A stretch of 64,000 nucleotides of DNA, from contig JAQOTA010000054.1 in the NCBI GenBank assembly GCA_029532415.1, positions 1,054,001-1,118,000 on the forward strand. Reading direction: 5' to 3'. A program made the position numbers and the translations under genes. Below the pieces are notes generated by a model that did no database searches, was not told the DNA's origin, and saw nothing but the letters and a program-made list of their open reading frames with translations. This DNA comes from Marasmius tenuissimus (Eukaryota; Basidiomycota; Agaricomycetes; Agaricales; Marasmiaceae). Position 1 is the first letter of the stretch; every line of letters begins with the position of its first letter. Positions 32,088 to 58,052 of this stretch are shown here, in pieces.

Positions 32088-35049
32088 ATGGATCACAAGC
32101 AGCTAGAAGAGCTGCGGGGGCTGTTAGGATCTATCATGGAGGATGAGGATGAACGCGAGGCATTTCTTGGGAAGAAGGATGATGAAGCGCAGCGTTACCT
32201 TGATATGCTCCAGCTCGTGAGTGTCTGAATATGGTCTCGAGGCTTTCAGGAGATTCTGAAAATGGTTATCAACCTTCCAGCTCGCCGACTCTCCTGACAT
32301 CCCCTCTCGATTGCGATCCACGATACTTCAAATTATGCTCCGACTCTCAAAAAAATCCGGGCTTTGCCCGGAATGCCTAGTTATACAGAACGTACAACAG
32401 CAAGGGCAGCATCCAGTTGGTGGTGGAGGCTTCGGCGATGTCTGGAAGGGGACTATTGGTCACGCTGGCTCTACCCGAGCAGTATGTCTGAAGGTAGTCA
32501 AAGTATACCTTACATCAGACGTACGCCGGTCGTTGGCGGTATGTTTTACTCCGGTTTCGAAATTGTCGATATGCTAACCAGATGCATATAGGGCTACCTT
32601 CGAGAAGCGATTGTATGGAAGCAGCTCGATCACCCAAATATCTTGCCATTCCTCGGTATCTACTACCTGGATGATACTCGACAGCGGATATGCTTAGTAT
32701 CTCCGTGGCAGGAGCGCGGTAACCTGGTGGATTACCTGAAAGATACCCCACGAGAGTCTGTCAACCATCTCTCATTGGCGAGTTTCTTCTTCCTCTCCTG
32801 TGCGTCGTGATTAACGGGGGATCTTATAGGTATTCGATATAGCGTTAGGCCTCTCCCACCTACACTCGAAGAAGATCGTGCATGCTGATCTTAAGGGCGT
32901 GAGTCGTTGCGACGGCTGTACATTTTCAGTATTCACAGACTGGTCTACCTGCAGGTAAATGTCCTAATCACCTCGTCAGGAAGGGCTTGCATCTGTGACT
33001 TCGGCCTGTCCCACATAGCCGACTCACAGGTGCTCGGACTTTCCTCTTCATCACCTCGAATTACGGGAACAGTACGCTGGATGGCACCAGAGCTTTTCGC
33101 CGAAAATGCAACCGCCACAAGAGAAAGTGATATATACGCTTTCGCATGCGTTTGCTACGAAGTATGTTGATTGCCCTCATCGGTCATACAAACGAAACCA
33201 ACCCAAGCCTTCAATTTCATTGTCAGATTCTCACTGGTTGCCTCCCCTTCCACGAGTGCAGGAGTGATGGTGCAGTAATACTCCAAGTAGCACTTGGAAA
33301 GCGCCCTCCCCGTCCAGAAGCTCTTTCGAAATCATCAGTCGTAATCTGGAATATCATGGAGGTGTGCTGGCAGGCGAACCCTTTGTCGAGACCAAGCACT
33401 TCAGCTATACTCCGCGATAATGTCGTTGTAACGAAACCCGCTGCTACTCTATTCCACCCGGCGTTATCTACGCCACATTCGCCTTCACATCCCTACATTC
33501 CTCTGCCGTCTTCAGCTCCCGCAGCACCTACACCTATGGCAATGTCACACCAAATAGCTTCACCAGCCTCGTTACCACTGTCACTCGAGATTGATGGCGA
33601 ATCCTCAGTTCATTTGTTACCGATACCTAACCGTCCAAATGTGTTAAGTACGCGGGACGATGTTGCTTCACCGCCGTCTCTAACGTCTGTTCGCCGGGGA
33701 CTGCCTTCAGCTTCTCGTATGGACGAGGAGGCAAAAGTACAAATGCACGACAGCGCCTCCACAGCTGGTGGTGATGGCTGGGGAGAAAGGGCTTCCCCTC
33801 AGGATATGTGTCAACGCTTGAAAAAGTCCTCCCTCAAGCGTAACCTGGATATGTCAGGCACCAAAACGAGCAGTGGTGCGACTTTGGCGTTGGTTGCAGA
33901 AATTCCTCTCGTCCCCCCTGTATTGTCGGTGGCCGAATCTGCTCCTACGGTGAAAGCGACATTCAAATGGGTGCGCGGGGAACTTATCGGGAAAGGTACA
34001 TACGGGCGCGTATACCTTGCCACGAATGCAACAACGGGAGAGGCGATGGCCATCAAGCAGGTAAATTTACCTCGGACACCGAGCGATAGGAACGACGAGG
34101 CGCAAGTACGCGGTTGTTCGGGCTTTGAGGTTGGAGATTGAAATGTTGAAGGACTTGGACCATCCTAATATCGTGCAGTACCGAGGTTTCGAAAAGACTT
34201 CGGCTCATCTGAGCATGTAAGGAGCTCGCTGAATCGCCTTACGTTTGGCTGATTTAAGCTTCTTTTTTCTTCCATAGGTTCCTGAAGTACGCTCCTGGCG
34301 GTTCAGTGAAAAGTGTTTTGCTCAAGCACGGCAAGCTCAGTGAAGCGGTGTCCATTTCCTTCACCGCACAGATCCTCAGTGGATTGGAATATCTCCACTC
34401 GAAGGGCATCCTCCATCGAGTACGTTCGCATCTGACAGTTGCATCTTTTGTGTGCTGACGACTGGTTCTCAGGATCTGAAGGCCGGCAACATCCTTATTG
34501 AGCTGCCAGATGGAGTCTGCAGGATATCGGGCTTTGGGATGTGCACGCGAACCACTGAGAGTCACGGAGCGGATACCGCTATGATGGGAACTATATATTG
34601 GATGGCTCCAGAGGTGATAAACCCGCAAGGAAAAAGCTACAATGACAAGGTGGATATATGGAGTTTGGGTTGCGTGGTTTTAGAGATGTTAGGGGGCACT
34701 CGTCCGTGGTCGGGTGAGGAGATGTCTCAAGTTCCTATCAAAGTACGGATTTTCTTTTGTATGTAGCACCCAGGGACTCGATACTGACTCGAGCCTTCTT
34801 GACAGGTTTCCCGAGAGAAGACTCCACCTCCTGTACCCGAAGGTGTGGTGTTGTCGGAGCTTGCGGACGACTTCCTACGGCGAAAATGCTTTGCCATGTA
34901 AGTCAAGGCATGCTGATTCCTCACAACCTGTTGAAAATGACTACCTTTCCTCCAATAGAAACCCGGAAGAGCGCCCCACTGCTTCGGAGTTGCGGAGACA
35001 CAAATATCTCGAGCTACCGCCGGGCTGGAAGTTCAGCGGATTCACTTAA
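32088..35049 (+). CDS. Kinase 1: TKL-like kinase plus C-terminal BCK1/Ste11-like pseudokinase domain (frameshifted)
   Basis: Starts MDHKQLEELRGLL at 32088. A helical N-terminal segment (EDEDEREAFLGKK, YLDMLQL) is followed by an active-looking kinase: Gly-loop GGGGFGDVWKG, Lys in VCLKVVKVY, Glu in YLREAIVWKQL, HADLKG, CDFGLS and MAPELF. A Ser/Pro-rich linker leads to a second kinase domain of MAPKKK type: GELIGKGTYGRVYLA, MAIKQVNL, HPNIVQYRGFE, GILHR-DLKAGN, DIWSLGCVVLEM, and the end NPEERPTASEL with LELPPGW and stop 35047-35049. In this domain DFG is replaced by GFG (RISGFGM). One extra base near 34105 shifts the frame and gives a stop at 34139-34141. The protein therefore ends in the second N-lobe unless this is a sequencing error. 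The intron 32778-32829 has a GC donor. Expected role: cytosolic Ser/Thr kinase with a pseudokinase tail. Confidence 0.85.
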
Positions 35050-35751: not shown

Positions 35752-38496
35752 AATGGACCACAAGGAGCTAGAAGAGTTACGGGGCCTGTTGGAAACGATT
35801 GCCGAGGACGAGGAGGAGCGTGAGGCATTTCTGGGGAAGAGGGGTGATGAAGCGCAGCATTGGCTCGACATGCTTCAGCTGGTGAGTGTATGAATCGTCT
35901 CAGGGCTTCGTATGCTGATCAAACTCTTAGCTTGCCGATTCTCCAAATGTCTTCTCTCAGACTCAGCTACGATCCACAATATTCACAATTATGATTCGAC
36001 TATCCAAGAATTCTGGGCGTTGCCCCAAATGCCTGGTCATACAAAACGTGGAGAAGCAAGGGAAACATCCTGTCGGCGGCGGCGGTTTTGGTGACGTTTG
36101 GAAAGGGAAAATTGGCCATGCTGGGTCTACGCAGACCGTTTGTCTGAAAGTCGTGAAAGTCTACCTTACATCAGACGCTCAGCAATCATTCAAGGTACGC
36201 TCTACTCCATCTTTTCACAGGAAGCCCAGACACCAACCAGAAACGTATGCAGGAATACCTTCGAGAAGCAATTGTGTGGAAGCAACTCAAACACCCGAAC
36301 GTCTTACCATTTCTCGGCATCTACTACCTGGATGATACTCGAGAACGTTTATGTTTAGTATCCCCTTGGATGGAACGTGGTAACCTAGTGCAATACTTGA
36401 AAGATACCCCGCGAGAGTCCGTGGATCACCTCACGCTGGTAAGTCTTCCAACCTTTTTCTATTTCTCGTTTGACACGAAATCCAACAGGTGTTCGACATC
36501 GCTTCGGGCCTATCCCATCTGCACGAGATGAAAGTGGTGCATGCGGATTTGAAGGGTGTGAGTGTTATGATACTTGTGGCAATACCCACCCTAATAGTCT
36601 ATTCCTCCAGGTCAACATCTTGATGACACCATCAGAGAGAGCATGCATCGCCGACTTCGGTCTGTCCCGTATATCGGATACACACGCACTTAAGCTTTCG
36701 TCTTCGGCCTCTCGAGCGATAGGAACAGCACGCTGGCTAGCTCCAGAACTGTTTGCCGAGAATGCAATTGCGACAAGGGAGAGCGACATCTATTCTTTCG
36801 CCTGTGTCTGTTATGAGGTACGTCTCCTGTTTTAGACATCTCACAACCGACTGAGTGCAATGTTGGTAGATTCTGACAGGCCTTTATCCTTTTCACGAGT
36901 TCAAAAATGACGCCGCAGTGACCCTTCAAATCCTACTCGGAAAGCGTCCCTCGCGCGTCGAAAAGTTGATGGAATCGTTCGGATCGGTTTGGGCCATCAT
37001 GGAGACGTGTTGGCGAGATGACCCGTCTGCAAGGCCGACTGCCTCATCGATAGCACAAGATGTCGCTACGTCCAAGCCGACTCCCGTAATACCCGCACCC
37101 GTCTGGGACGATTCCATCGTAACCCATGTGTGGAATAATCTCGAACACTCGGTCACCAGCGCTACCCCCTTGGAGTCTTTGAAACCTCTTCACAATCGAC
37201 AAACCGGCCATTCATCGTATAACAGCGAGCCCATGGCTACGGGAACGCACATTCGATGGATACGAGACCAAATGAGAAGACAGAGAACCCTGTCCGACCC
37301 GTCAAAACTAGATTGGGACAGTGGAGAGAACTTCTCTCCCGGCTCTCCCAAACATGTCAACGTCGTGAAGCTACTGAGTCGCCGAAACTCAGGGTTTTGG
37401 AACTTGGGCTCTGTACCTTCCGAAGGTTCCGGCTCTTACGGCTCATACGGCTCGGGTTCCTATGCCTCGACATCCTCAAGCATACTGACGAGGTACTTCC
37501 CAAAACGATTTTTTGTCTCCAAAATGGCCTCAGAGGTACGTGGTGCTCCCCGTGTATCGAATGACTATCTGACGATAAACCTGTAGGATATATTAGCCCG
37601 AAGTGTCGATACCGGGGTGTGGTCCAGTCAGAACGAGCTGTTCGATGAGGAGCTGGAACGGGCTTCACGGACGAGCTTGGAAGTTTTCGTGATATTCGCT
37701 CTTGAGCGGAAAGACGAATTCTGGGGTTATGCAAAGTACGTCGGTTCATTTCCCTTACGTTCCGTGCCTCCATGCCTATCGAAACCCTAGAATAGCCGGG
37801 ACATCATGGCCGAAGGAGGGCAGGCCCTCTTCCCCCCTAGCTGTCTACGAACCGGTGATACCAAGCGAAGAACCACCTCAGGACACGACCGAGGGAGACT
37901 TCCCGCCCGCACCACAAGTATCTCTGTTAAGCTCCCTCTTTGCGACCCTTAGCGAAGCTTCTCCGCACGAAACATCGGGACTTTCAAATCACGCGAACTT
38001 TTCAAGGTCTCCAGGTCACCTGTCGCCAGTACCGATGACAGGCGACGAGACACCCCATTCCCCTCCAGATACCCACGATTCCCCACTCAAAAACTTCCGT
38101 CCACCCCCCAAAATTTCAGTGTCTCCTCCTCATCACTTTGGCCTCGATAGTGTGGTCGGGTCTCCCCTTGCCCTCTCTGGTTGGGAGGATCAGTTAGGAA
38201 AACGAAGCGACGTGATGGTAGAGGGAGGATCCGCGAAGAAGAAGGATCATTCACTTGACGAGTTCACGGTCGAATGGATCTGTACCGACCGTCTTCCTTA
38301 CAGCCGCACACGACACATACGGAACCCTTGGAATGATGACCGAGAGGTCAGACTCTCGAATGACGGGCACGAGTTGGAGCCTGGTGTTGGGCAGCAGCTG
38401 ATCGATGAGTGGCAGAGATATGTTGTGGAGCGGCGAGCGGGTGGCAGAGGGTTCCTACGTCGCCGACAGGCGGAGTCTTCAGCGTCTTCTGGTTGA
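35752..38496 (+). CDS. Kinase 2: TKL-like kinase fused to a YTH (m6A-reader) domain
   Basis: Starts MDHKELEELRGLLETI. Kinase motifs: GGGGFGDVWKG, VCLKVVKVY, YLREAIVWKQL, VVHADLKG, ADFGLS and LAPELF, then ILTGLYPFHEF. A Ser/Gly-rich linker (GSGSYGSYGSGSYAS) leads to a YTH domain split by introns: RYFPKRFFVSKMASE, DTGVWSSQ, FALERKDEFWGYA, KIAGTS, a long insert, and FTVEWICTDRLPYSRTRHI with NPWNDDREVRLSNDG and LEPGVGQQLIDEW. The insert between the two halves is usual for fungal YTH proteins. Trp residues at GVW and VEW, in the positions of the m6A cage, are present. YTH proteins bind N6-methyladenosine in RNA and steer mRNA fate. All splice phases agree and no frameshift was found. Stop at 38494-38496. 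Confidence 0.9.
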
Positions 38497-38879: not shown

Positions 38880-39658
38880 ATGACGGGAGACTCTTCGCGA
38901 GACCACGTTTTGGATCTTTCGCCCCCAGAATCCAGTATAGGCACTTCGGTTAATCCGATGTCGCCCCCTCTTCCACTTCCAGTAGCACCAGCCTGGTCTC
39001 CAAAGAGGTTTTTTATTCTCAAGTCGCTGTCGCAGGCATGGTTTTTTTGCCTGTTATGTGCTCCCAATACTGACGTAACGATTGACAGCCCGACTTTGAT
39101 CTCTCTGTAGAAAGAGGCTTGTGGACGACTCAGAAGCATAACGAGGGTATATTGGATCAGGCATATCGAACATCCTCAGAGGTCTACTTGATATTCAGCG
39201 TGAACAAGAGTGGGGAGTTTTAGGGATACGCTAGGTCAGTCTACTTTATACTTCCCTCTCCATCTTGGTTTGCTCAGGACCGACCAACTTTGGACATAAG
39301 AATGGCAGGCCCCCTGCGACAACGCGAACGCCAGGCTACAGACCCAGTGTCCGTCGTCCAGTACTCCCCCATCATCGAAGGACCCGTAAGTCTTATGGGA
39401 GTTATTGGCGAAGGCCCCAATGCATTAAGCGATTCATTCAAAGTTGAATGGCTCTGTACGGAGCGTCTCTCGTTCCTCCGTACGAGTCATATACGGAATC
39501 CGTGGAACCACAATAAGGAGATCAAGGTTTCGAGGGACGGTACGGAGATCGAGCCAGTGGTCGGACAGCAGCTGCTGGATGAATGGAACAAGTTCGTTCA
39601 GGAAGTTCGTGGTGGGGTCGTGACGAGTTCAAGGTTGCGAGAGATGGAACAGAGCTAG
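38880..39658 (+). pseudogene. Stand-alone YTH-domain gene, broken
   Basis: Starts in a Pro-rich segment and reads SPKRFFILKSLSQ, then after an intron with a GC donor (39046-39088) VERGLWTTQKHNEGILDQAY and FSVNKSGEF. A TAG stop (near 39222) follows where the family has an aromatic residue before GYAR. It continues RMAGPLRQ after an intron, then FKVEWLCTERLSFLRT, NPWNHNKEIKVSRDG and EPVVGQQLLDEW. This sequence is closer to ordinary YTH domains than the kinase-fused ones (KHNEGILDQA, MAG, HNKEIKVSRDG). It has no kinase part. The nonsense codon, the GC donor and the shortened N-terminus indicate a relic. Confidence 0.85.
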
Positions 39659-40239: not shown

Positions 40240-40742
40240 TCACCAGCTCTCCGGCATCGGCGCGCCACTAACCCCATCGTAAGTATTCCTGAACGGATAC
40301 CGGTAATATTTTCTCCTCAATGCCTTTCCCTTCTCCTTGCCACCTCCAACATACTTCACGCCCTCAATGGTCTCCGGTGCCTTCCCCATCATCTCGATCC
40401 ATTTGACTATAGCCACCATGCTTGTCCGCATCGAAGGACGGTATGGAGCGCTCAGACTGCCCAATCTCCCATGCTCTGGAGCCTCCACTACAATGCCCCA
40501 TCCCCGAAATCCCAAACATGCGGAAGTACTCAACCAACTCTCCGCCAGAAACCAGTGTTGGACAGTCACTGACCGGTCACTGACCGGGCCAACACTGCCA
40601 GAAACCACCTGTACCCGCTTATAATATCCCTCGGAGATTCAGATCTTGGGTGTAATCAGCCCATCCGCCTGTTCAAAATACATCATACGACAGGATTTCT
40701 CCAAACGCACGCGTGTCGCCCTTGTACACCGAGATATCGCGT
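40240..40742 (-). pseudogene. Tannase-family 3' fragment
   Basis: On minus the sequence matches the last 150 or so codons of the tannase genes: a degenerate YYKRVQVVSG, then EYFRMFGISGMGHCSGG and the tail GVKYVGGGKEKGKALRRKYY with YPFRNTYDG. It carries frameshifts and a TGA in place of the Arg codon in SWRC near the end, and it is interrupted by a 45-bp element. No upstream exons or catalytic Ser motif are present. Confidence 0.85.
40553..40597. mobile_element. 45-bp hAT-like micro-element with 8-bp target duplication
   Basis: The segment begins CAGTGTTGG and ends CCAACACTG, so its ends are inverted repeats. It contains GTCACTGACCG twice. It is flanked by CCAGAAAC at 40545-40552 and 40598-40605. 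The tannase paralogue at 44.87 kb has a single CCAGAAAC and no insert. CAGTG ends plus an 8-bp duplication fit the hAT superfamily. Confidence 0.75.
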
Positions 40743-41295: not shown

Positions 41296-44200
41296 ATGTC
41301 CCAGACTGCACTGGACGACTTACTGAGGAACAATTACAGTGCTGAAATCTGGAGCGAGGAGTTGCCAAAAGAATTGGTTGCGGGGTTACAAATCGCAGTA
41401 GTGGACGAAGAGCGGCGCCGGGACATCCTAGAGAAGAAGGGCGAAGATGCGCAGCGCTGGTTGGATACTCTTCAGCTGGTGCGTCTACAAACCGTACCGA
41501 AGTTCTTCAACTGAAGTAATTTCAAGCTCGCTAATTCCGCTGATATCTCCTCTCCATTACGATCCACGATACTTCAGATCATGCTCCGACTCTCCAAGAA
41601 ATCTGGATGTTGCCCGAAGTGCCTGGTCATTCAGAACGTAGACAAGCAAGGCGAACATCCTGTCGGTGGCGGGGGTTTTGGCGATGTATGGAAGGGGACT
41701 ATGTGTCATGCTAGCTCTACGCAGACTGTATGTCTGAAGGTAGTGAAGATATACCTTACGTCGGACGTGCGCCAGTCGTTGGCGGTATGTTTTGCTCCAG
41801 TTCTTCAGGGCGGTGTCCTACTCAACGAATACAGGAATACCTCCGAGAAGCAATTGTATGGAAGCAACTTGATCACCCAAATGTCTTACCATTCCTTGGG
41901 ATATACTATCTAGACCATACTCGACAGCGGATATGTTTAGTGTCCCCGTGGATGGAACACGGTAACATGGTAGAGTACCTGAAAGGTACCCCACGAGAGT
42001 CTATCGACCATCTTGCACTCGTGAGTCTCCCTCTCTGCTTCTGTGCGCGGTAAATCTCAAATATTTCTATAGGTACTCGATATAGCTTCAGGTCTCTCTC
42101 ACCTTCACGTAAAGAAAATTGTGCATGCTGATCTGAAGGGCGTGAGTGGGTATATCTGACGGCCTTGCTTGTAGTACTCATCAACGGTCTCTTCAGGTGA
42201 ATGTCCTAATTACGGCATCAGGAAGGGCTTGCATTTGTGACTTTGGCCTGTCCCTTATAGCCGACTCACAGGCGATCGGGCTTTCCTCTTCAACCTCTCG
42301 AGCCGCAGGAACGCTACGTTGGATGGCACCAGAGCTATTGGCTGAAAATGTGACCGCCACGAAGGAAAGCGATATCTACGCTTTCGCATGTGTTTGCTAC
42401 GAGGTATGCTTTATATCCTCGTACCTCATACAAACAAGACTGATCCAATTGTTGTCAGATTCTCACTGGTCTCCCCCCCTTCCACGAGTGCAAGAATGAC
42501 GGTGCAGTAATCATCCAGGTATCACTTGGAAAGCGCCCCTCTCGCCCCGGAAATCTTTCGAAATCATTGATTGTAGTCTGGAATTTGATGAAAATGTGCT
42601 GGCAGGAAAACCCTTCATTGCGACCGAGCGCTTCAACCATATTACGCGACCATAATGTCGGTGTAACTAAACCCACTGGCGCTTCAATTCCATCCGCGCC
42701 ACATTCGCCTTCACGCCCTTACACCCCCATACCGTCGTCAACCCCCATGTTACCTACACCTATGGTGATCTCACAGCAAGCAGCATCACCGACTCCGGGC
42801 CGCGCCATCACTATCGCTCAGGACTGATAGCGCATCTCCAATCCATCCGTCACCAATACCCAACCCAAATGTGTCAAATTCGTCAAGTATGCGAGACGAT
42901 GTCGCTTCGCCACCGTCTAGGCTGCGAGAGCAGTCTCGGGCGTTCGCGGGATCATCATTGCCCGTTGTCTCTGCTGCCCCTCCGCCTCCGTCAAACTCCT
43001 CTGATACATCGACCATCAGGACCATAATTTCGACGAGCTCAGCAACATTGACCGATTCTGATGACTACGAAGACGATGGCACTTGGCAAAAGCCACCTAC
43101 CGAAATAGTTGACCAGGGACGGCCTCCAATCACGATCAAGCATGACGATATGGTCCCAATCTCGAGTGAGCATCTTCATTTCATTTGTCACTAGACCATC
43201 TCTTACCATCGAACTCTCACAGCGACATTCAGATGGGTGCGTGGTGAAATTATCGGGGAAGGTCCATACGGACGTACATACCTCGCCTTGAACGCAACAA
43301 CGGGAGAGCTTATGGTCGTCAAGCAAATGGAGATACATAGACCGCAGATTAGGAAGCGAACAGAGGCCACTAAAGCCTTCAGGTTTGAGAGTACAACGTT
43401 GAAAGATTTGGACCATCCCAATATCATACAATACCTGGGATTCGAAGAGTCGACGACCGATTTGAGCATGTAAGGAGCCTGCTTGATCCCCTTACCATTT
43501 AGCTGATCAAGACTTCCTTGACAGATTCCTGGAATACTTTCCTAGCGATTCAGTTGGAAGTGTGCTTCTTGAGCATGGCAAGCTCAGTGAATCAGTCATC
43601 GCCTCTTTCGCGGCGCAAATCCTCAGTGGACTGGGATACCTCCATTTGAAGGGCATCCTGCATGGAGTACATTCACACTTCATGCCTGCATTTCTCGTGT
43701 GCTAATACGTTATCGTAGAATCTAATGCCCGAGAACATCCTTGTTGATATGAGTGGAGTTTGCAAGATTTCGGGTTGGAGTACTCGTACGTCGCGGTGTC
43801 CTGCTCGGAGTAACGGGGCGAATGTACCCATCACACCTGTGGAGGATTCTGTCTTTTGGATGGCCCCAGAGATGTTAGAACCGCCAGAGAAAGGTTATGA
43901 CTTCAAGGTGGATATATGGAGTTTGGGCTGCGTGGTTTTGGAGATGCTGACGGGTACTCGTCCGTGGTCGAGCTCCGGGACGCTTGTAGTCTTTGGCAAG
44001 GTATAGATCCTTTTGTAGCACACAAGAACTCGGTGCTGACTTGAGCCTTCTCGACAGGTCTCTAGGGAAAGGACTCCGCCGCCTCTACCCGAAGGTGTGG
44101 TGTTATCGGAGCTCGCGGACGACTTCCTAAGGCGAAAGTGCTTTGCCGGGTGAGTCCATGCCTGCAGGTTTCTTTACACCTGTTGAAAATAACTTACTTT

Positions 44201-44300
44201 CTCTGATAGAAATCCGAATGAGCGCCCCACTGCTTCGGAGTTGATGGAGCACGAATATCTGGAGCTGCCGCCGGGCTGGCAGTTCAGCGGGTTCCCCTGA
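41296..44300 (+). CDS. Kinase 3: TKL-like kinase plus BCK1-like pseudokinase domain (linker frameshift)
   Basis: ATG 41296 gives MSQTALDDLLRNN and a helical segment ending RWLDTLQL. Kinase domain: GGGGFGDVWKG, VCLKVVKIY, YLREAIVWKQL, VHADLKG, CDFGLS, MAPELL. The linker frame ends with TGA at 42825-42827; after a shift near 42800 the family sequence resumes (SPIPNPNVSNSSSMRDDVAS). A GT-AG intron (about 43166-43223) then enters the second domain: RWVRGEIIGEGPYGRTYLA, VVKQMEIH, HPNIIQYLGFE, GILHG-NLMPEN, KISGWS, DIWSLGCVVLEM, NPNERPTASEL and PPGWQFSGF. Both the HRD Asp (HGN) and the DFG Asp (SGW) are lost, so this domain is a clear pseudokinase. It is the closest paralogue of kinase 1. The linker shift means either two proteins, a dead tail, or a sequence error. 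Confidence 0.83.
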
Positions 44301-44542: not shown

Positions 44543-46257
44543 TCATGCTATCTCGCATCGCCAGCTCTCCAGCTTCGATGGGTCGCCGACACCATCATAG
44601 GTATTCCTAAGCGGATACCGGCAGTGTCTCCGCCTCAATGCCTCTCCCTTCTCCCTGTCGTCCCCAACATACTTCACGCCCTCGATGGTCTCCGGTGCCT
44701 CCCCCATCTCGACCCACTTGACCAAAGCCACCAACACATTCTTTTCCGTGTCCAAAGACGGCGCGGAACGCCCAAACTGTCCGATCTCCCATGCTCCAGG
44801 GCCTCCACTACAATGTCCCATCCCCGAGATCCTAAATATGCGGAAATACTCGTCCAAGTCCCCGCCAGAAACCTCCTTTACCCGTTCATAATACCACTCG
44901 GAGATCTTGGGTGTAATTAGACCATCTTCCTGACCATGATACGACAAAACCTTCCCTCCTCTCTCCCTAAATGCACGCATGTCGCCTTTGTACGTCGAAA
45001 TATCGAACGGATTCAACCGAATCGCGTATTCGTAATCTTCCATCGTGAGTTTCGTAAGATCGAACGAGCTGTTATACACAGCGTATTTGAACCACTCCGC
45101 TGCAAATACGGCGGGTTCACCAGAGAGAGCTTGGAGGAAGTACGGGTCCGTCTCCCCACCAGGCTGAGGAGCGGGGTATATCTCTCGTCCGTCTAGCCCT
45201 AAGAACGGGGTATATACCTTTCGGACTGTCTTGACCTGTGTGGCGGTCAAGCAGGTCCCGTTGGTGGTGGTGTTTTCGGAGCAAAGAAGCCCAGACGGAT
45301 CATAATGGCATTGATTGGGGTCTTCGATGATACCGTCTATCGCCCCGTCGAGTCCGTCGCATTGGGAGATAACATCGTCGTGGATGAGGCCAGACCAGGT
45401 GTCGGTGGGGATGAATGAGGGTGAAGTAGAGTCTTTGGTGATCTCGGAGTAGTAATGGCCGAGCGAGGTGACGAGACCGTTACAGTTGACGGCGGGGGCC
45501 CCTTCAGTGGAAACGGTTCACAGTCAGAAGGCGAATAATCTGGTAGTGTAACGAGACGTACCTGCCAAAACGCCATCAAAGTCTTCCGGGAAGTCCTCCA
45601 CGCTCTTAACGCCCTGCCGGCCGCCAGTAGAGCAGCCGAGGTAATACGATTTCGTATACTGTTGGCCGTAGAATGCTTTGGTGATCTCTTTCCCAATCAC
45701 AGTGCTCATATGGATCCTGGATCGGAAGATGTTCAGGGGGTCGAGAACAGCAGACCTCATTGAAGCTGAAAACAAACTCACGAGCGATACGCAAAATCCG
45801 CCAAAACCTGCGGCTGATTCTCGAAGGCAGCTCCGCTCGTACCATTATGACCGTTGTTAGCTCCTACAGCCGCGAACCCCAACGAGCTCGTGTAGGCTAA
45901 ATTCTCGTATCCGATGCATCCGGCTAGGCCTCCGTTCCCCAGGTTGAGGAACCTACCAGTCCAGTTACGTGGTAGCCACGCCTCCATGTTGATGGAAGAG
46001 CTGTTACTAGTCTCGACTAGCATCGTGACGCGACAGATATCGGCGGCGATGGGCTGGGGTGTGGATGCACATGAGGCGTCGCTGTCTGGAAATTGGAGAG
46101 TAGAGCCTGCTGGAACAAGGGAAACGTCGTATAGGGTGGTCTTGTTAGAGAACTGGGCGTTGGAGAAACTCGAGAGAGAACATGCAGTCTCGAAGTTAAA
46201 CGAAGAAGCGAGCTGGAGAGTACTCAAGAGAGCAGGGAATGCGTTGGATGGCAACAT
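44543..46257 (-). CDS. Secreted tannase/feruloyl esterase family enzyme, copy 2
   Basis: Starts at 46257 with signal peptide MLPSNAFPALLSTLQLASS; three exons as in copy 1. Family blocks: NNGHNGTSGAAF, IGKEITKAFYG, GCSTGGRQGVKS (nucleophile Ser), EDFPEDFDGVLA, HGQEDGLITP (Asp) and GMGHCSGGPGAWEIG (His), ending SWRCEIA. Frames are open throughout. Role as for copy 1: extracellular hydrolysis of phenolic or gallate esters, substrate unknown. It lies antiparallel between kinases 3 and 4. Its promoter carries a MITE only 38 bases upstream of the ATG. Confidence 0.92.
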
Positions 46258-46288
46258 TTCTGTGGTTTTACTCTCTCTGAGTGTAGAG

Positions 46289-46294
46289 CTTATA
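46289..46294 (-). promoter_or_regulatory. TATA box of tannase copy 2 at the MITE junction
   Basis: On minus TATAAG lies 32-37 bases upstream of the ATG, the same spacing as in copy 1. The first TA of the box is the target duplication of the adjacent MITE, so everything further upstream was moved away by 617 bp. Confidence 0.6.
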
Positions 46295-46911
46295 CAGAGG
46301 CAAACCCATTAGCGAAACATTGTAGATAAAACCGCTCGTAACGCAACTTCACGGAGGAATTACACAAATATTTATGGCAGACAAAGAGTCATGCATGTGG
46401 AGATACTGCTGAAATATTTGTGTGATTTTATGGGCAGGCCTTTGCAATGCGCAAAGCATTTCATGCCTTGAAGGCAAATTTGGCCAAAAACCCATTAGCG
46501 AAAAATCACGTGTTGCGCTGGTTTGACTCTCCAAGCGCCCCTAAGCGCCCATCTCGACTGAACCCTTCATCACTGAAATTGCGCTCTCATCAACATGACA
46601 AGCCTCTGTCCCCGAAACACGTTTTGGAATGACTCTAACACCTTCATGGATATGCTTCAAGCACTTGACGTGGCAGAAATCAGGGCAGGGAGCCAAATTC
46701 TGGTGATTTTGTCCCATTTTTCCAAAATTCTGGGTATTTTTCATTTTTCGTGAAGCCATACCGCTGACGATACCCTTCTAATAACCAGCAGTGTATTCCA
46801 CAAGTTTGATAGCATTGAACAAAAAAAGACCGCTTGAAAATATCCCCTTATGCAAGCTCAGGATCGAAATGTTTCGCTAATGGGTTTTTTTCGCTTATAG
46901 GTTTGCCTCTG
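46295..46911. mobile_element. Tc1/mariner-like MITE, 617 bp, TA flanks
   Basis: The ends are CAGAGGCAAACC and its inverse GGTTTGCCTCTG, flanked by TA at 46293-46294 and 46912-46913. The subterminal motif CCCATTAGCGAAA occurs near both ends in opposite orientation (about 46304 and 46874) and once inside (46491). No transposase is encoded. The motif arrangement suggests transposase-binding sites. Confidence 0.8.
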
Positions 46912-46913
46912 TA

Positions 46914-47313: not shown

Positions 47314-49012
47314 CTATGGCATCTCGCATCGCCAGCTCTCCAACTTCGACGCGTCACCAACTCCGTCGTAAGTACTCCGAAGGGGATACCGACAGTGTCT
47401 CCTCCTGAAAGCCTCCCCCTTCTCCTTATCATCACCAACGTACTTCACACCCTCGAGCGTCTCTGGCGCCTCCCCCATCTCAACCCACTTGACCATCGCC
47501 ATCAGCACATTCTTATCTGCATCCAGCGACGCCACAGAGACGCCACTCTGACCAACCTGCCACGCCCCAGGACCCCCGGCACAATGCTCCATCCCCGGAA
47601 TTCTGAAGAACCGGAAATACTCGTCCAGCTCCCCAGAGGCACTCCCAGAAATCTCCTGCACACGTTCATAATAGCGTTCAGAGATCTTCGGTGAGATCAA
47701 CCCGTCCGCTTGTCCATGGTATGTTAACACCTTCCCTCCTCTCTGCCTGAACGCGTCCAAGTCACCCTCAAACGTCGCAACATCGAAGGGGTTTAACCGA
47801 ATCGCGTATTCGTAATCCTCCATCGTAAGGGTCGTGGGGTCGTACGACGCGTTGTTGTACACGGCGTATTTGAACCACTCCGATGTGAATGGAGAGGGGT
47901 ACCCAGATATCGCCAGGAGGAAATCTGGATCTGCCTCTCCGCCAGGTTGAGGAGCGGGGAACAGCTCGCGACCGTCTGATCCCAAGAATGGGCTGTACAC
48001 CTTCCGAACCGTCTCGACTTGTGTAACGGTGAGACAGGTGCCGTTGGTGGAGTTTTCTGCACAGAGGAGCGCGGAGGGGTCGTAATGACATCGATTGGGA
48101 TCTTCTATGATTCCGTCTCGCACTCCGTCGATACCATCGCATTGGGAGATGATGTCGTTATGGATGAGGCCGGACCAGTAATCGGTGGGGATGAATGAGG
48201 ATGAATTGGCGTCTTTCGTGATTTCGGAGTAGAGGTGGCCGGCCCAGGCGATGAGATTATTCCAGTTGATAGCAGGGGCCCCTTTTGGACAGGTTAGAGT
48301 GAGAAGGTGAAGAAGCTAAGGCGAGGCGTACCTGCAACGACACCATCGAAATCTTCTGGGAAATCTTCTACGCTTTTGATACCCTGTCGACCGCCTGTAG
48401 AGCAACCGAGATAGTAAGATTTCTTATGTCGTTGGCCGTAGAATGCTTCAGTAATCTCTTTCCCAATCACGACATTCGTATGAACCCTGTACAACAGTTT
48501 AGAACGGCGAAAATATGAGCAGAGAAACGAACGCACGATCGGTACACAAAGTCTGCCAATACCTCCGGGTGATTCTCAAACGCAGCTCCGCTAGTCCCGT
48601 TGTGGCCGTTGTTAGCTCCTACAGCCGCGAATCCTAGCGAAGTCGTGTACGCCAGGTTGTTATATTGGATGCATCCAGCCAGCCCTCCATTCCCCAAGCT
48701 CAGAAATCTCCCAGTCCAGTTCCGTGGTAACCATGCCTCCATGTTGATTGAAGAGTCGTTGCTAGTTTCGACTTGTATGGTGATACGACAGAGGTCGGTG
48801 CTAACGAGCTGGGGTGTGGGTTGGCATGTATCATCGGTGTCAGGAAATTGGAGAGTAAAGCCCGCCGGGACGATGGAGGCATGATAAAGGGTGACTTTGT
48901 TCGAGAATTGAGTGTTTGAAAGGCTGGATAGAGAACATGCAGACTCGAAATCGAAGGAAGGAGGACGTTGGAGAATGCTCAAGAGAGCATGTACTGCGTT
49001 TGGTAAAAGCAT
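47314..49012 (-). CDS. Secreted tannase/feruloyl esterase family enzyme, copy 3
   Basis: Start placed at 49012 (MLLPNAVHALLSILQ, signal-like); an upstream in-frame extension lacks signal character. Exons match copies 1 and 2: NKVTLYHASIVPAGFTL, NNGHNGTSGAAF, VVIGKEITEAFYG, GCSTGGRQGIKS, HGQADGLISP, GMEHCAGGPGAWQVG and the tail SWRCEMP. The Ser, Asp and His of the family triad are present and frames are open. No TATA box like those of copies 1 and 2 is evident in the usual place. Shares orientation with copy 2, in tandem. Confidence 0.92.
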
Positions 49013-49589
49013 ACCTGAACCTATGACTTTGAGACGAGACCTTTTCCCAGCTGAGCGCTCAGCGCTCAGTACGAGCAACAGTGAGACTCACCGGCACCGT
49101 CATCCCTGCTCTCCTAAGCTGTTCAATTTTGCAATTGGCCTGGGGTAAGTAATTTGTAACGGAACTGCTAAGCCCGAATTGTGTTTCAACTGAGAGGTGA
49201 AGCAGATTGAGTCTGATTTCTCTTCAGGACGGCCACAGAATACTCTCGAGGGAGTACAGGTAGGTCATGAGGAGAACATGGTGGTCCAGGATCAAGGAGG
49301 TGCAATCTTGGTCACTCCGGTCCGAGTATCCTACAGGCTGGCTCGACGCGACCGCCAGCTTTGTACTTATCGCCATCATCATTGCCGACTTTCCGCACAT
49401 CTCTGTTTTCATTTTCTCAAAAGTGTTCTATCTATGTCACGTTCAACAAATAACTGATTATTCCTCTCAAAGCCCGCTTCTTTACCCACAATCCAGTGAC
49501 CTTCCAACACCCTCGAACGTGTTTTCTCTCTCACGGCAAAGAGAGTCAGACGTTGGGCGATTAACACACAGTACCGTGCTGTAGAGGGA
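49013..49589. other. Divergent promoter region between tannase 3 and kinase 4
   Basis: No gene recognised. Confidence 0.45.
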
Positions 49590-51284
49590 ATGCCATCTTC
49601 CAACGACAAGCAATCCAAATCAACCAGGGAGCATGCGCATCAGATCCACCGAACTCGGTTGGGCGAGCTTGAGAGTTGCATTATCCAGGAACTCGTCAAC
49701 AACCTCGAAGTCGTTCTCAAAGACGACAAACTACGCGAGGAAATCGTCAGTGCAAAAGGAGAACATGCACAACGGTGGCTAGATTTGCTTCATAAGGTGA
49801 GATGTTTTCACGATGACCCCTCCAATCTCGTGCTGATCACTATTCGAAAGCCTCTGGACTCGCCGGGAGAGCCAGCTGTGATCTCAACACCATTCCGATC
49901 CACAATATTGAAGACAATAACTCGCCTCATCAAGAAATCTGGACTTTTTCCACAATCACTTATCCTCCAGAACGTCCATATGAACGAGAATTATCCCGTT
50001 GCTGGTGGGGCATTCGGAGAAGTATGGCGCGGAAGGATTGGTGAGCCGGATGCAGGACAAACTGTTTGTATCAAGGCCGTGAGGATGTATCAGAATTCGG
50101 ACGTTAAAGCGTTGTTCAAGGTAATCCCAAGATCCTCTATGGTTTGCTTGAACGACTGAGAGCTACCACAGGACTATTTTCGAGAAGCGGTTGTATGGAA
50201 GCAGTTAGATCACCCAAACGTTCTGCCATTTCTCGGAGTGCATTTTCTAGACGAATCGGTGAAACGGATAGGTCTCGTCTCCCCTTGGATGGATCACGGA
50301 ACCCTGGTGCAGTACTTGAAGCTGAAGAAAGAAAAGCGTGAACCTGTTGACCGTCTCTCTTTGGTTTGGAAACTCTTTTCGCGCCTCACCCCATCTTACG
50401 CTGACATAGCCTCTCTTCCCAGGTACAAGACATTGCATCTGGTCTCTACTATCTACACGCGATGAAGATAGTCCATGCAGATCTAAAGGGTGTAAGCAAG
50501 CCAATCCACAAGCCTGCCAATTTTGCTAATACGCCGCCTTAGGCCAATATCCTGATGACCCCATTTCTGACAGCATCTATATGCGACTTTGGGTTATCCC
50601 GGATCGCGGATTCGCAGGCACTCAAGATGTCTCTGTCCACTCCCCGAACCGCGGGAACTACACGATGGATGGCGCCAGAACTCGTGCATGAGCACGCGAA
50701 GACCACGAAGGAGAGTGACATATACGCGTTTGCGTGCGTTTGTTACGAAGTACGTATACATCATCATGGGAAACCTATCTGTTTAACTGCAACCTCAATG
50801 GTAGATCTTTACGGGCCGGGTGCCATTTCACGAGTTCACGTACGATGCTGGCATTGTACTGAAAAAGGTTGCTGGTAGCCACCCATCGCGTCCTGCCGAC
50901 CTTCCCAAATCGCCAACCATCAATAAGGTGTGGACCCTAATGGGAGAATGTTGGGATACCGATCCATCAGCACGACCCAACGCGTCGACTATCCTGCAGC
51001 ACCTGAAGAAACCAACTCCCACTTCCAAGTCACCAAAGCGCGAACTAACTTCAACTATATCCATGAAGGAACTGATGGACAGAAAAGTCTCCATACTCCT
51101 GAAGGGAGGGAGGAGACTAAGCGGGGTGCTGCGCGGCTATGACCTCTTTTCGAACCTTGTTCTCGATCGCGTCGACGACGAGACGAAACCAGAATGCCCG
51201 GTTCCTATGGGCTCTATAGTTGTTAGGGCTGGAGGCATAACGTCTGTGCTCGTTGCTGGCTTACATTACCGTCTCATGAGGTGA
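49590..51284 (+). CDS. Kinase 4: TKL-like kinase fused to an LSm7-like Sm domain
   Basis: Eight or so exons give about 474 aa with all phases consistent; exon 1 is 49590-49796. The N-terminal helical segment (LGELESCIIQELVNNLE) is followed by the kinase at about residues 115-385: AGGAFGEVWRG, VCIKAVRMY, YFREAVVWKQL, IVHADLKG, CDFGLS, MAPELV and a substrate-lobe PFHEF. The C-terminal 75 residues form an Sm fold: LMDRKVSILLKGGRRLSGVL, then RGYDLFSNLVLDRVDD (Sm1) and GSIVVRAGGITSVLV (Sm2). The order and the GG-R...G.L.GYD...NLVLD pattern fit LSm7 best. LSm proteins form rings that bind the 3' end of U6 RNA or deadenylated mRNA. No lesions seen; likely functional as a kinase. Confidence 0.88.
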
Positions 51285-51645: not shown

Positions 51646-51896
51646 CAGCTGTCCCAATAATTGTAGAAAGTTTTGCGTTTTTTCGTGTTCAGAATCTTTG
51701 TTTAGTGTGCAAACACAATGTGATCCCCTACTGAATGCAAACTGAATGAGCTCCATGGGTGCTGGTGGGGCCTAACATCCTCTAGTACCGCGACCATACC
51801 AAATCGAGTCATATTCTGTTTGTTCACTAAACAAAAATTCTGAGCACGAGAAACCGCAAAACTTTCTACAATTATTGGGACAGCTGTAATGTGATT
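51646..51896. mobile_element. Near-palindromic MITE, 251 bp, TA flanks
   Basis: Ends CAGCTGTCCCAATAATTGTA and its exact inverse, with inverted similarity extending to about 75 bp on each side. TA lies at 51644-51645 and 51897-51898. No coding capacity. Tc1/mariner-type by target site. Confidence 0.82.
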
Positions 51897-51898
51897 GG

Positions 51899-52604: not shown

Positions 52605-54272
52605 ATGTACGAACCCCGTACTACCAAGTCGAATAGGCTCGAGGATCATGATACTCGCGAGCTAATCGAACATATTCAATTTATTCTCGAAGACGGCAAA
52701 CTACACCAGGAACTGCTGAATGCAAGAGGAGACGATGCACAAGAGTGGCTAGACTCACTCCAGAAGGTTAGATGAATACATCTTGACCTCTCTCGATATC
52801 GTACTGACGGTTCTCTCGAGCTGGCAGGTTCTACAGCGGTTTTGACGCCGTTCCGAAATACCATTCTGAAGACGACGACTCGCCTCTCCGCAAACGCTGG
52901 GCTTTGTCCTCCATCGCTCGTCATCCGGAATGTTCACGTGGATGGGAAATTTCCTATCACTTGTGGAGGATCCGGAGAGATATTTGTTGGCAGGATCGAC
53001 GAATCGGATGTTACGCAGATCGTTTGCGTCAAGTTCGCGAGGATATACCAAACCTCGGACAACGTGCAAGCATTGTTCAATGTGGCTACAAAGTCCTCTG
53101 TGACTCGCTCAGCTCCCTGATATCCATCACAGGAATATTTTCAAGAAGCGATCGTGTGGAAGCCGCTGAACCACCCAAATGTTCTGCCATTTATCGGAGT
53201 GTACTTTGGGGACGATGAGATTCGACGACCTGGGCTTGTTTCTCCATGGATGACCCAGGGGAGCCTGGACCAATACCTAAAAGTCACCCCACGGGAGTCT
53301 GTTGACCAACTTCCTTTGGTTCGGAAATTTGTGTTGCTTTTCCTCCTATGATTCATTGACTTACAGCACCTCTTTCTAGGTACACGATGTCGCAACAGGG
53401 CTATCCTATCTGCACTCAAAGGAGATAGTGCACGCAGATCTGAAGGGGGTAAGGACAAGGCCTATCTACACACCCTTCAAGTTACCGCTCTCTAAACCTT
53501 CATTTCAGGCCAACATCCTGCTCACCCCATCTCTGACGGCGTTGATATGTGACTTTGGATTATCTTGTATCTTGTCGAGCTCCGAGCAGGCTCTCGAAAT
53601 GTCCTCGTCCTCCCCCCGCGCTAAGGGATCAATACGATGGATGGCACCGGAGCTATTCTCTCCACAAGTGATAGCCACGAGGGAGAGCGACATATACGCC
53701 TTTGGGTGCGTCTGCTACGAGGTACGTGCGCCGCCCGCCATGCTTTCATTGTCACGAGAAGCCCGCCTGCTAATCATCAAAGTTGACGGTAGATCGTCAC
53801 TGGCCAAATACCATATCACGAAATCAAAAGGGACGTTGCGGTTATGGCGGAGAAGATGATTCATTATCGGCACCCATCACGTCCTGTGTCGGTCCTTCCC
53901 GAGTCGCCGATTGCAGATTCGATGTGGACTTTGATGGAGGAGTGTTGGAACAGGGATCCGTCTGAGCGACCCAGTGCATCGACCATCTTGGCGCGCGTTT
54001 CTGAGATGGAGGCGTCCCAACCCACTCCCAGCCCTAGTCCAGCGGATCAGGTCCCACCAGAGACGAGGAAAGCTGCTGGGAGAAAGCTCCTCGTGTTCCT
54101 ACAGGGAGAGGGCAAATGTGGTGGTGCGCTGCGCGGTTATGACCTCGAGAGTTTCCTTGAGGAGACACATCCGGGGCGAAAAATTTTCTTGGGCATTGTC
54201 GTTGATAGGGACGACAGCATGACGGGAAGGGAGTCATCAGAGGATGGGCGCTGGGACTATGAGAGTAACTAA
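52605..54272 (+). CDS. Kinase 6: TKL-like kinase with decayed Sm-like tail
   Basis: Starts MYEPRTTKSNRLEDHD, then a helical segment with QEWLDSLQK. Exon 2 is in frame with the acceptor before CTGGCAGG. Kinase motifs: Lys in IVCVKFARIY, YFQEAIVWKPL, IVHADLKG, CDFGLS, MAPELF, PYHEI. The Gly-loop is altered to CGGSGEIFVG, so ATP binding may be weak. The tail aligns with kinase 4's Sm domain only in part: RKLLVFLQGEGKCGGALRGYD; after this the Sm2 motif is not recognisable and the end is ESSEDGRWDYESN. It is the neighbour and closest paralogue of kinase 4 and looks like a degenerating or diversifying copy. No frameshift found. Confidence 0.82.
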
Positions 54273-55274: not shown

Positions 55275-58052
55275 ATGGCGGACAAGGAACTAGAAGAATT
55301 GCGAGACTTGTTGGAAACCCTTGTGGAGGACGACGAGCAGCGCGAGGCATTCCTCGGGAAGAAGGGTGACGACGCACAATATTGGCTCGATATGCTTCAG
55401 CTGGTGCGTCTAGCTTGTCACGCTCTCGAAACTTTGGGATACTGACACGCGACGTAGCTTGCCGATTCTCCAGATGTCTCCTCTCAGCTACGATCCACGA
55501 TATTCACAGTAATGATTCGTCTCTCCAAGAATTCTGGGTGTTGTCCTAGATGTCTGGTCATCCAGAACGTAGAGAAGCAGGGAAAATATCCGGTTGGCGG
55601 AGGAGGATTTGGGGATGTCTGGAAAGGAACTGTTGGTCACCCAGGCTCCGTTCGGACGGTTTGCCTAAAGGTGGTGAAGGTGTATCTCAAGTCAGACGTG
55701 CAGCGCTTGCTCAAGGTATGCCCTCTGCAACTTTTCGTTTGATGTGCCTAAAGTAAAATGCAGGCATACCTTCGAGAAGCAATCGTGTGGAAGCAGCTTA
55801 GGCACCCAAATCTCTTACCGTTCCTCGGTATCTACTATCTGGATGACACTCGAGAAGAAATATGTTTAGTTTCCCCCTGGATGGACCGCGGAAACCTGGT
55901 ACAATACCTGAAGGATAATCCCCAAGAGCCCATCGACCATCTTTCGTTGGTGAGTTCTCTGCTCTTGTCCATTCTTGTCTCATCCTCCGGCTCACAAGAC
56001 GTGGTAGATATCTGATGTCGCGTCGGGCCTTTTACACTTGCACATAATGAAAATAGTCCACGCTGACCTGAAAGGTGTAAGTGGGTCATGTGGAACTATG
56101 TTTACATGCTTACTGAGAAATCGTCTTTATAGGTCAATATCCTAATCACACCGTCTGGGAGGGCTTGCATCTGTGACTTCGGCCTGTCCCGTATCTCAGA
56201 CTCCCAAGTATTTCGGCTTTCTTCTTCGACCACACGGGCTATAGGAACAGTGCGTTGGCTAGCACCGGAGCTATTAGGTGAAAATGAAATCGCAACGAAA
56301 GAAAGCGATATATACGCTTTCGCATGTGTCTGCTACGAGGTATGTTCACGCTGTTGGTTCTTCGTACAGCCAAGTAAACTATCGAACCGGTAGATTCTCA
56401 CAGGCCTCCTTCCCTTCCACGAGTGCAAAACTGATGCCGCAGTGATGTATAAGTTGGCGCGCGGAAAGCGCCCATCGCGTCCTGAAGTCCTGTCAGAATC
56501 GTTCACTGCGGTCTGGGAGATGATGGAAGTGTGTTGGGAGGCAGATCATTCGGCGAGACCAAGCGCCTCAAAGATAGTTCAGGACCTGGCTACGATCAGC
56601 GTGGAACCTGTTGCACCCGCATCTGCTTGGGACGATTCCATAGGCGCTCACGTGTGGAGTAACCTCGAACATCCAGTCGCCAGCAGCGGTACTGTAGAGC
56701 CCGTTCGAGCTGGACAAAACACCCGTTCATTGACGAGGAAGGTGTCCACGGCTGTAGGAATGCATATACGGTGGATACAAGACCAAAAGCGCAGGCAGAG
56801 AGGTCTGATTAATCCATCCAAAACTGACGCGGACAACGAGGAAAATCGCACCTCTGTACCTCTCAATTACGCGAAGAATCTCAGTCACCTTTACCCAGCC
56901 TTGCAAAGATCTTTGAGCTCGGACTCTGCCAACTCCGATGCCTCAGGTTCCTATGCTTCAACGTCTTCGAGTACGCTGATGCGATATTTCCCAAAGCGAT
57001 TCTTCGTCATGAAAGTGGCCTCAGAGGTGACTCGAATTCGCTCTGACTGTCGAGTAATTATTGACGATGTATAAATAGGATCTCTTACTGAAGAGTGTCG
57101 AGACTGGAGTGTGGTCAAATGTGACGATGGACGAGGAATTGGAACGGGCTTCCCGCACGAGTGTGGAAGTATATCTGGTATTCGCTGTCAAGAACAACGA
57201 AGAATTCTGGGGTTATGCCAAGTATGCCGCTTCTTTCTCCGTTCACGTGTGTTTGTGCTGACGTTGAGCAAGGATGGCTGGTACTTCGCCATCAAGGTCG
57301 AAGCAGTCCCTGTCTCGTCCCCTATCTTCCGAATCTCTGCGGACGAGTGGAAAGCCACCGGATCTCGCATAGGAGACGAAAACATCCTTCCTTTGGCTCC
57401 AGGATCTCCACTGAGCCCACCCATCGCAATCCTTGACCTCGAAGCCGAGCCTACTACCCATACAGAACCTGAGCCGATGGAACCTTCGGACCTCCTGAAG
57501 CCTCTATCGTCTACACCCTCAATGGTGGGCGACGAGACGCCCCAATCTCCCACCCCATTCGCCAGAAATCCCGAAGAGATACGACCGGTATCCACCGAGC
57601 TAGACAAGATCATTCCATCGCCTGCGACCCCTGACCAGCTCAGTCTGGATGGCGTTATAGACAAACTTGGGTCTCTTCAGACCTTTCGCGACGACAACAA
57701 CCCATGGGGACAATCAGAAGGCGATGCAACGGAGAGAGCAGCAGAGGTAGAATTAGGAGGACGCATGATGGTCGGGAATGGCCTCTTACCCAACGAATTC
57801 AAAGTCGAATGGTTATGTACGGAACGTCTTCCTCACGCTCGTACCCGCCATATCCGTAACCCCTGGAATCGCGACCGAGAGGTTGGGTTTTCTGATGATG
57901 GGCGGGAGCTGGAGCCCGGTGTTGGGCAGCAGCTGATAGATGAATGGCAGAGGTATCTTGTGGAACAACAAGCTGGTGACAGGGGGTTACTTCGTCGTCG
58001 ACAGACGGGATCCTCGTCTTCGTCAGGGCGAGAAGCTGGCAGGGAATCTTGA
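55275..58052 (+). CDS. Kinase 5: TKL-like kinase fused to a YTH domain
   Basis: Starts MADKELEELRDLLETLV. Kinase motifs complete: GGGGFGDVWKG, VCLKVVKVY, YLREAIVWKQL, IVHADLKG, CDFGLS, LAPELL. A Ser-rich linker precedes the YTH halves: RYFPKRFFVMKVASE, ETGVWSNV, FAVKNNEEFWGYA, KMAGTS, then FKVEWLCTERLPHARTRHI, NPWNRDREV and LEPGVGQQLIDEW. Between the halves the frame breaks after SESLRT. A candidate 52-nt GT-AG intron (about 57350-57401, GTGGAA...CTCCAG) restores it to SPLSPPIAILDLEAE; otherwise a frameshift must be assumed. Trp residues of the predicted m6A cage (GVW, VEW) are kept. It is the sister of kinase 2 and sits at the right end of the kinase array. Confidence 0.85.

What the first reader, a model, noticed from the sequence alone, without database searches (positions are those of the whole stretch)
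32088..58052. Array of six TKL-like kinases with interchangeable C-terminal domains taken from conserved signalling and RNA proteins
Six paralogous kinases on one strand share the same N-terminal segment and kinase domain but end in different domains: BCK1-like kinase (two), YTH (two), LSm7-like Sm (one), decayed Sm-like (one). The donors are normally conserved stand-alone proteins of cell-wall signalling, m6A reading and RNA decay/splicing. A kinase used as a platform for repeatedly captured domains is reminiscent of integrated decoys and tandem-kinase proteins in plant immunity. That parallel is inference; regulatory scaffolds or passive tandem fusion are alternatives.
Basis: partly seen in the sequence, partly recalled or inferred. 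Interest (0 to 1): 0.92.

Follow-up and report, generated by a model that had tools for sequence, protein, structure and literature searches.

The report
Mushroom kinases wearing borrowed protein domains
In Marasmius mushrooms a large family of signalling kinases has repeatedly gained tails copied from important cell proteins, much like the bait domains on plant immune receptors, which suggests but does not prove a fungal sensing system.

Summary
The window is from Marasmius tenuissimus. Six TKL kinases with five shared intron positions run into BCK1-like (2), YTH (2), Sm (1) and decayed Sm-like (1) tails; three more lie just beyond it. The Sm tail is SmG, not LSm7. K2, K4, K5 and K9 read open; K1, K3, K6 and K7 carry frame irregularities. 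The kinase exon has 118 matches in this genome, and in Marasmiaceae proteins the family carries 24 C-terminal tail types on 65 labelled members (VHS, G-alpha, RhoGEF, CNH, WD40, La, MIF4G, ATG11, NACHT and others). Six types were checked in this genome's DNA. BCK1 and YTH tails come from 3' ends of donor genes, keep donor introns and evolve under purifying selection. All five BCK1 tails lost the DFG aspartate and the SmG tail its RGN motif; the second YTH cage tryptophan is absent in 4 of 9 tails, displaced in 4, kept in 1. The platform kinase stays catalytically intact (190 of 195) and non-RD. BCK1 and SmG tails most simply replaced YTH. Best reading: a fungal counterpart of integrated-domain receptors. 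Architecture is shown; sensing is inferred (0.42).

The parts
32088..35049 (+). K1: N-terminal segment + TKL kinase + BCK1-derived linker and BCK1-like tail (tail domain about 33962-35049; one frame break in its N-lobe)
   Evidence: HRD kept, DFG read as GFG
35753..38496 (+). K2: TKL kinase + YTH tail, 791 aa, fully open, 8 exons
   Evidence: YTH hits
38994..39628 (+). lone decaying YTH fragment of donor type (in-frame TAG), no kinase
41296..44300 (+). K3: TKL kinase + BCK1 pseudokinase tail (about 43228-44300; HGN and GWS in place of HRD and DFG); frame switch in linker near 42.8 kb
   Evidence: AFHP31 relative P0031 continuous
49590..51284 (+). K4: TKL kinase + SmG tail (LSM match 51063-51248), C-lobe and SmG in one exon
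52605..54272 (+). K5: TKL kinase with altered glycine loop + decayed Sm-like tail (deposited protein P0032)
55275..58052 (+). K6: TKL kinase + YTH tail (YTH about 56986-58030); frame problem in YTH loop, deposited model (P0026, 574 aa) ends there

Best explanation
A large tandem-duplicating family of catalytically intact-looking, non-RD TKL kinases (N-terminal helical segment + kinase) serves as a platform onto which 3' ends of conserved hub genes are fused in frame and later swapped. Shown: fusions are real for six tail types, several are shared between species, tails are constrained, donors persist elsewhere in the genome, and some tails lost the donor's active residues. Inferred: the tail works as bait, an integrated decoy or sensor that binds whatever targets the donor hub (an antagonist's effector, a virus protein or an allorecognition partner) or loses a partner when the hub is disturbed, and the attached kinase turns that into a defence or cell-death signal, as in plant NLR-IDs and kinase fusion proteins.
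For: In-frame fusions in own DNA for six tail types: YTH, BCK1, SmG, G-alpha (785 of 785 aa, no frame break) and VHS, DUF6699 in one open exon of 352 aa. Fusions annotated in other Marasmius species. BCK1 tails keep the donor's four intron positions, YTH tails its two; linkers of K1, K3, K7 match sequence upstream of the donor kinase domain (pairwise E 6e-25 to 2e-13, no low-complexity filter). dN/dS: BCK1 tails 0.27-0.34, YTH second half 0.09-0.31. Tails 77-87% identical between species in K3, K7, K6, K9. DFG-Asp absent in K1, K3, K7, P0029, P0031; SmG RGN to RAG. Platform Lys/Asp/Asp intact in 190 of 195 rows; HxD middle residue never Arg in 198 read. 24 tail types, 31 changes on 65 kinases. 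One member is kinase + NACHT.
Against: No expression, interaction or phenotype data. Tails show purifying, not diversifying, selection. Loss of activity is not uniform: the second YTH cage Trp is clearly absent in only 4 of 9 fused rows, present but displaced in 4, kept in 1; the G-alpha tail keeps GTPase motifs. The five BCK1 tails include two pairs that look orthologous, so they are not five independent losses. The plant survey itself reports integrated kinase domains as frequent and intact (PMC4759884). K1, K3, K6, K7 carry frame irregularities. Many members have short or featureless tails (24 of 199 short on both sides). dN/dS of the K4/K5 tail is 0.85.
Confidence: 0.42

Rival explanations
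1. Regulatory modulators: the tail docks the kinase into its donor's complex (cell-wall/polarity signalling, corepressors, m6A or snRNP assemblies) and tunes that pathway, for example as a dominant-negative BCK1 or competing SmG subunit; no pathogen sensing.
For: Several tails look like polarity and cell-wall signalling parts (BCK1, CNH, RhoGEF, PH/PB1, PX-PH; the yeast names Rom2 and Cdc24 are my recall); pseudokinases commonly act as allosteric partners (general knowledge); purifying selection; G-alpha motifs kept.
Against: The range of unrelated donors (24 C-terminal types), clustered copy-number growth (118 exon matches) and tail swapping are unusual for housekeeping regulation.
Confidence: 0.36
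2. Passive outcome of tandem duplication: read-through into neighbouring gene fragments yields fusions that are mostly neutral and decay.
For: Frame irregularities in K1, K3, K6, K7; decayed K5 tail and K4/K5 tail dN/dS 0.85; a lone donor-type YTH fragment inside the array.
Against: BCK1 and YTH tail dN/dS well below 1, fusions kept in a second species with 77-87% tail identity, YTH tails on one side of a branch across M. fiardii, M. crinis-equi, M. tenuissimus and AFHP31 (99/98), donors for BCK1, SmG and DUF6699 on other contigs.
Confidence: 0.15
3. Gene-model artefact: automated annotation merged neighbouring genes.
For: At least one deposited model (P0002) joins a YTH end to the next kinase; most of the 24 tail types rest on deposited models; N-terminal additions (PAH P0063, SM-ATX P0206) were not checked in DNA.
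Against: Six tail types verified in genomic DNA across the junction.
Confidence: 0.04

Closest known systems
[quoted passage not shown]
   Same: A multi-copy receptor backbone carries diverse domains taken from host proteins; integrated WRKY domains show loss of critical residues; many domain types recur in several families (PMC4759884, passages)
   Different: Backbone here is a non-RD TKL kinase, not an NLR; fungus; no sensing shown; the same paper finds integrated kinase domains frequent and intact, unlike the BCK1 tails here
Plant tandem kinases and kinase fusion proteins (Lr9, Sr43, Pm57)
   Same: Kinase fused to a second kinase or to unrelated domains (PMC10260399, PMC10260397, PMC11153570: title and start of abstract as listed)
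   Different: Plant genes with shown disease resistance; here the second domain comes from many identifiable donors and function is unknown
Agaricomycete TKL expansions (TKL-ccin; Laccaria TKL)
   Same: Lineage-expanded TKL kinases; one family member is named TKL-ccin by its source (P0167); expansion noted in Laccaria (PMC2838846, passages)
   Different: The passages seen do not describe swapped C-terminal hub-protein domains
Fungal NLRs with kinase N-terminal domains
   Same: PF07714 is on a published list of 19 NLR N-terminal domain profiles (PMC9815663, passage); family member P0179 has kinase + NACHT
   Different: No NACHT was seen in the array proteins scanned; the tail is a hub-protein domain

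Membership tests
TKL protein kinase | PF07714/PF00069 domain with catalytic Lys, HxD Asp, DFG Asp | tested here: met
   190 of 195 rows covering all three sites intact (199 rows in all)
TKL protein kinase | catalytic activity | not testable with these tools
   needs an in vitro assay
BCK1-type active MAPKKK (tails) | HRD and DFG present | tested here: not met
   DFG-Asp absent in K1, K3, K7, P0029, P0031 (5 of 5, two likely orthologous pairs among them); HRD also lost in K3 and P0031; donor C5:624487 intact
m6A reader YTH (tails) | both conserved cage tryptophans (cage role recalled) | tested here: inconclusive
   Trp1 kept in all rows; Trp2 absent in P0001, P0003, P0007, P0026 (K6); a Trp at a displaced place in K2, P0004, P0005, P0006; kept in P0012 and 6 of 6 donor-type rows
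   SmG closer
SmG RNA-binding subunit (K4 tail) | Sm2 RGN motif (role recalled) | tested here: not met
   own SmG VIRGNS, K4 VVRAGG
Integrated-domain immune receptor | multi-copy backbone with diverse C-terminal domains from host proteins | tested here: met
   24 tail types on 65 labelled kinases, 31 changes; six types verified in DNA
Integrated-domain immune receptor | recognition of a foreign or altered ligand and defence output | not testable with these tools
   no infection or interaction data
NLR-ID | NB-ARC or NACHT backbone | tested here: not met
   no NACHT/NB-ARC in the array proteins that carry Pfam annotation: P0004, P0026, P0032, P0034; one distant family member has NACHT

The most novel reading that the evidence does not exclude
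Marasmiaceae possess a previously undescribed class of intracellular immune or non-self receptors, kinases with integrated domains, whose tails are a readable list of the hub proteins (polarity and cell-wall signalling, G-alpha, corepressors, m6A, snRNP, translation, trafficking, ubiquitin and autophagy factors) that antagonists of mushrooms attack.
Probability: 0.38. Interest if true: 0.97.

Novelty: new variant of a known kind. Interest (0 to 1): 0.9.

Why it matters
Integrated domains in plant receptors have been used to predict which host proteins pathogens target. If these kinases work alike, fungi evolved the same trick with a different backbone, and the tail list names candidate targets of mycoviruses, bacteria and mycoparasites. 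It also gives a natural series of captured domains at different ages, with living donors, for studying how a domain is fused and reworked.

Tried and rejected
LSm7 identity of the K4 tail: rejected. Independent capture for each array gene: not supported by the kinase tree (BCK1 rows one clade, SmG rows one clade, among YTH-tailed rows) or by the similar dS of kinase and tail in K1/K3/K7 (0.65-0.78 and 0.68-0.75). WD40 tails as the highly repetitive type of fungal NLRs: self-identity at a lag of 42 residues is only 0.07-0.13 in five proteins; my reading (recalled) is Tup1 and TBL1/Sif2. RhoGEF and PH_10 fusions in this genome: no match lay just downstream of a family kinase exon; only other species' models show them. 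Structure of the K9 protein (P0004, 31 rows): mean pLDDT 61.9; kinase, parts of YTH and an N-terminal helical segment partly confident, loops not. The PDB fold search showed only kinases in the 50 rows listed, so the N-terminal segment stays unidentified.

Caveats. Tail labels rest on precomputed Pfam for most rows and on my own reading for BCK1, SmG, SH3 of P0118 (Pfam agrees), EEP (below the Pfam cut-off) and the Tup1/TBL1 split; the names Rom2 and Cdc24 behind CNH and PH/PB1 are recalled. P0007 was dropped from the kinase trees as too short (65 of 66 labelled rows; 196 of 199 rows); P0002, P0006 and P0026 were removed from the family set. In the YTH tree my pattern mis-cut the second segment of P0005 and P0022, and P0008, P0013 and P0020 were dropped. 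Both kinase trees are quick searches. The protein lists are the best 120 of 1175 and of 991 matches, with length limits set by the query, so the share with tails is no unbiased rate. The 118 exon matches include weak ones that may be other kinases. Downstream DNA was read for 23 of the 109 matches outside the array, and 5 of those 23 tails ran off the fetched piece. dS of the YTH pairs is 1 or more, near saturation. Literature: ten searches in an open-access library; no title or abstract start shown described fungal kinases with integrated domains; subscription papers and preprints were not covered.

Full report
What is there. The window is G000:C28:1054001-1118000 of a 71 Mb fungal genome. 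Deposited proteins on a contig of the same length (4243643) are from Marasmius tenuissimus, locus tags PM082. Hand-built models from three-frame reads give six genes, K1-K6, with five introns at the same places in the N-terminal segment and kinase. In K1, K2, K4, K5 and K6 the last kinase exon runs without a stop into the tail; in K3 the tail is reached after a frame switch in the linker and one more inferred GT-AG intron; the AFHP31 relative P0031 is continuous there. Just outside the window, on the other strand, lie K7 (BCK1 tail), K8 (unidentified tail, P0034) and K9 (YTH, intact, P0004).

Identity of the tails. The nearest own-genome relatives are C5:624487 for BCK1, C28:703447 for YTH (deposited as P0018) and C7:2525204 for the Sm tail. 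The last is SmG: among 15 other Sm loci it scores 149 against 88 for the next, and the tail's best solved relatives are SmG chains (1.8e-10), LSm7 later (6.3e-7). The BCK1 tails K1, K3, K7 and, from Marasmius sp. AFHP31, P0029 and P0031 lack the DFG aspartate (GFG, GWS, NFR, GFS, GWS), and K3 and P0031 also lack HRD, whereas the donor is intact; K3/P0031 and K7/P0029 look like orthologous pairs, so these are not five independent losses. For YTH, donor-type rows keep the second tryptophan in an EHRVSWG-like context (6 of 6). Of nine fused sequences P0012 (M. fiardii) keeps it, P0001, P0003, P0007 and P0026 (K6) have none there, and K2, P0004, P0005 and P0006 have a tryptophan at a displaced place that may or may not be the same residue. 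The site was mapped on the YTHDC2 alignment; its cage role is recalled. The SmG tail reads RAGG where SmG has RGNS.

How the tails arose. BCK1 tails share the donor's four intron positions and phases, YTH tails its two, so these were DNA-level copies. The SmG tail lacks an intron that the own SmG gene has, so intron loss or a processed copy is possible. The linkers of K1, K3 and K7 align with sequence upstream of the donor's BCK1 kinase domain (pairwise E 6e-25, 8e-24, 2e-13, no low-complexity filter), and the YTH homology of K2 starts near donor residue 533: the captured pieces are 3' ends of donor genes. A lone donor-type YTH fragment with a stop sits between K2 and K3, the kind of stray copy from which a fusion could start (inference).

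Are the tails used? Pairwise dN/dS (Nei-Gojobori) is 0.27-0.34 between BCK1 tails, 0.09-0.31 for the second YTH half and 0.20 for the first half in the one pair that is not saturated, against 0.07-0.23 for kinases where measurable; linkers 0.18-0.55 where measurable; the K4/K5 tail 0.85. Between M. tenuissimus and AFHP31, kinases are 89-91% and tails 77-87% identical in K3, K7, K6 and K9, almost without gaps. Against this, K1, K3, K6 and K7 carry frame irregularities, and the deposited K6 model ends in the YTH loop (P0026).

The wider family. The K2 N-lobe exon has 118 matches in this genome, some weak, many in clusters on C10 and C3. Of 23 copies outside the array read downstream, most, by eye, have short or featureless tails after a W...NVEY-like motif; two proved to be fusions, to G-alpha (C24) and VHS (C10), confirmed in DNA without a frame break. 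A DUF6699 fusion lies in one open exon of 352 aa on C3, with a 68% identical donor match on C12. The protein collection lists the family with YTH, VHS (with or without SH3), RhoGEF, PH_10 and PB1, CNH, G-alpha, homeobox, WW, GATA, C2H2, SH3, La, ATG11, DUF6699, USP7 C-terminal, AIG1, NACHT, MIF4G, PX/PH and WD40 tails in Marasmius, Moniliophthora, Paramarasmius, Stygiomarasmius, Rhodocollybia or Dendrothele (rechecked for some). Other than the six types verified in DNA these rest on deposited gene models, and merged models do occur (P0002).

Tree. On 65 labelled kinases 24 tail types need 31 changes (least possible 23; shuffled mean 49.3). BCK1 (5 rows) and SmG (3 rows) are each one clade among the YTH-tailed rows, most simply read as tail replacement; the G-alpha row lies among VHS rows. 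CNH needs 4 changes for 4 rows and VHS 6 for 13: the same domain type was gained more than once, or exchanged, or lost. YTH tails form one side of a branch against donors (99/98), consistent with one old capture. The platform kinase is kept active-looking: Lys, HxD-Asp and DFG-Asp intact in 190 of 195 rows, with G, A, S or V and never R before the HxD aspartate, the non-RD type. That non-RD kinases are common in immune signalling is recalled knowledge.

Mechanism. Most likely the tail is bait or sensor and the kinase the output. Shown: architecture, donor origin of the BCK1 and YTH tails, constraint, loss of active residues in BCK1 and SmG tails and part of the YTH tails, conservation of the platform's catalytic residues. 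Inferred: ligand, trigger and output. [quoted passage not shown] The main rival is pathway regulation by docking or dominant-negative tails.

Comparison. Plant NLR-IDs and kinase fusion proteins are the nearest analogues; membership fails on the NLR backbone and cannot be tested on function. Kosti et al. (PMC2838846, passages) report TKL expansion in Laccaria. No title or abstract start shown in the ten paper searches named in Tried and rejected described swapped hub-protein tails on fungal kinases.

Noticed in passing
window 44543-46308, 47314-49087 and 40240-40638, - strand: Tannase/feruloyl esterase genes (PF07519 for the first two) lie between the kinases; repeat families D8-D10, D12, D13, D15, D16 and D19 suggest tandem copies interleaved with kinases.
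   Followed up: partly
window 29322-30008 (-) and 59829-60185 (+): Ricin-type lectin reading frames (PF00652, PF14200) flank the kinase array on both sides.
   Followed up: partly
C28 about 1124.1-1126.5 kb (-), protein P0034: K8 keeps the YTH-type linker start but ends in an unidentified charged tail that is 80% identical in AFHP31 (P0051).
   Followed up: partly
P0179, Marasmius sp. AFHP31: Family kinase followed by NPHP3_N/NACHT, a direct link between this kinase family and fungal NLR architecture (deposited model, DNA not seen).
   Followed up: partly
P0004 residues 9-80 (K9 N-terminal segment): The shared N-terminal segment is predicted as four helices with partly good confidence; its family is unknown.
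   Followed up: no
P0063, P0206 and other long N-terminal extensions: Some family kinases have extra domains N-terminal to the kinase (PAH; weak SM-ATX); merged gene models not excluded.
   Followed up: no
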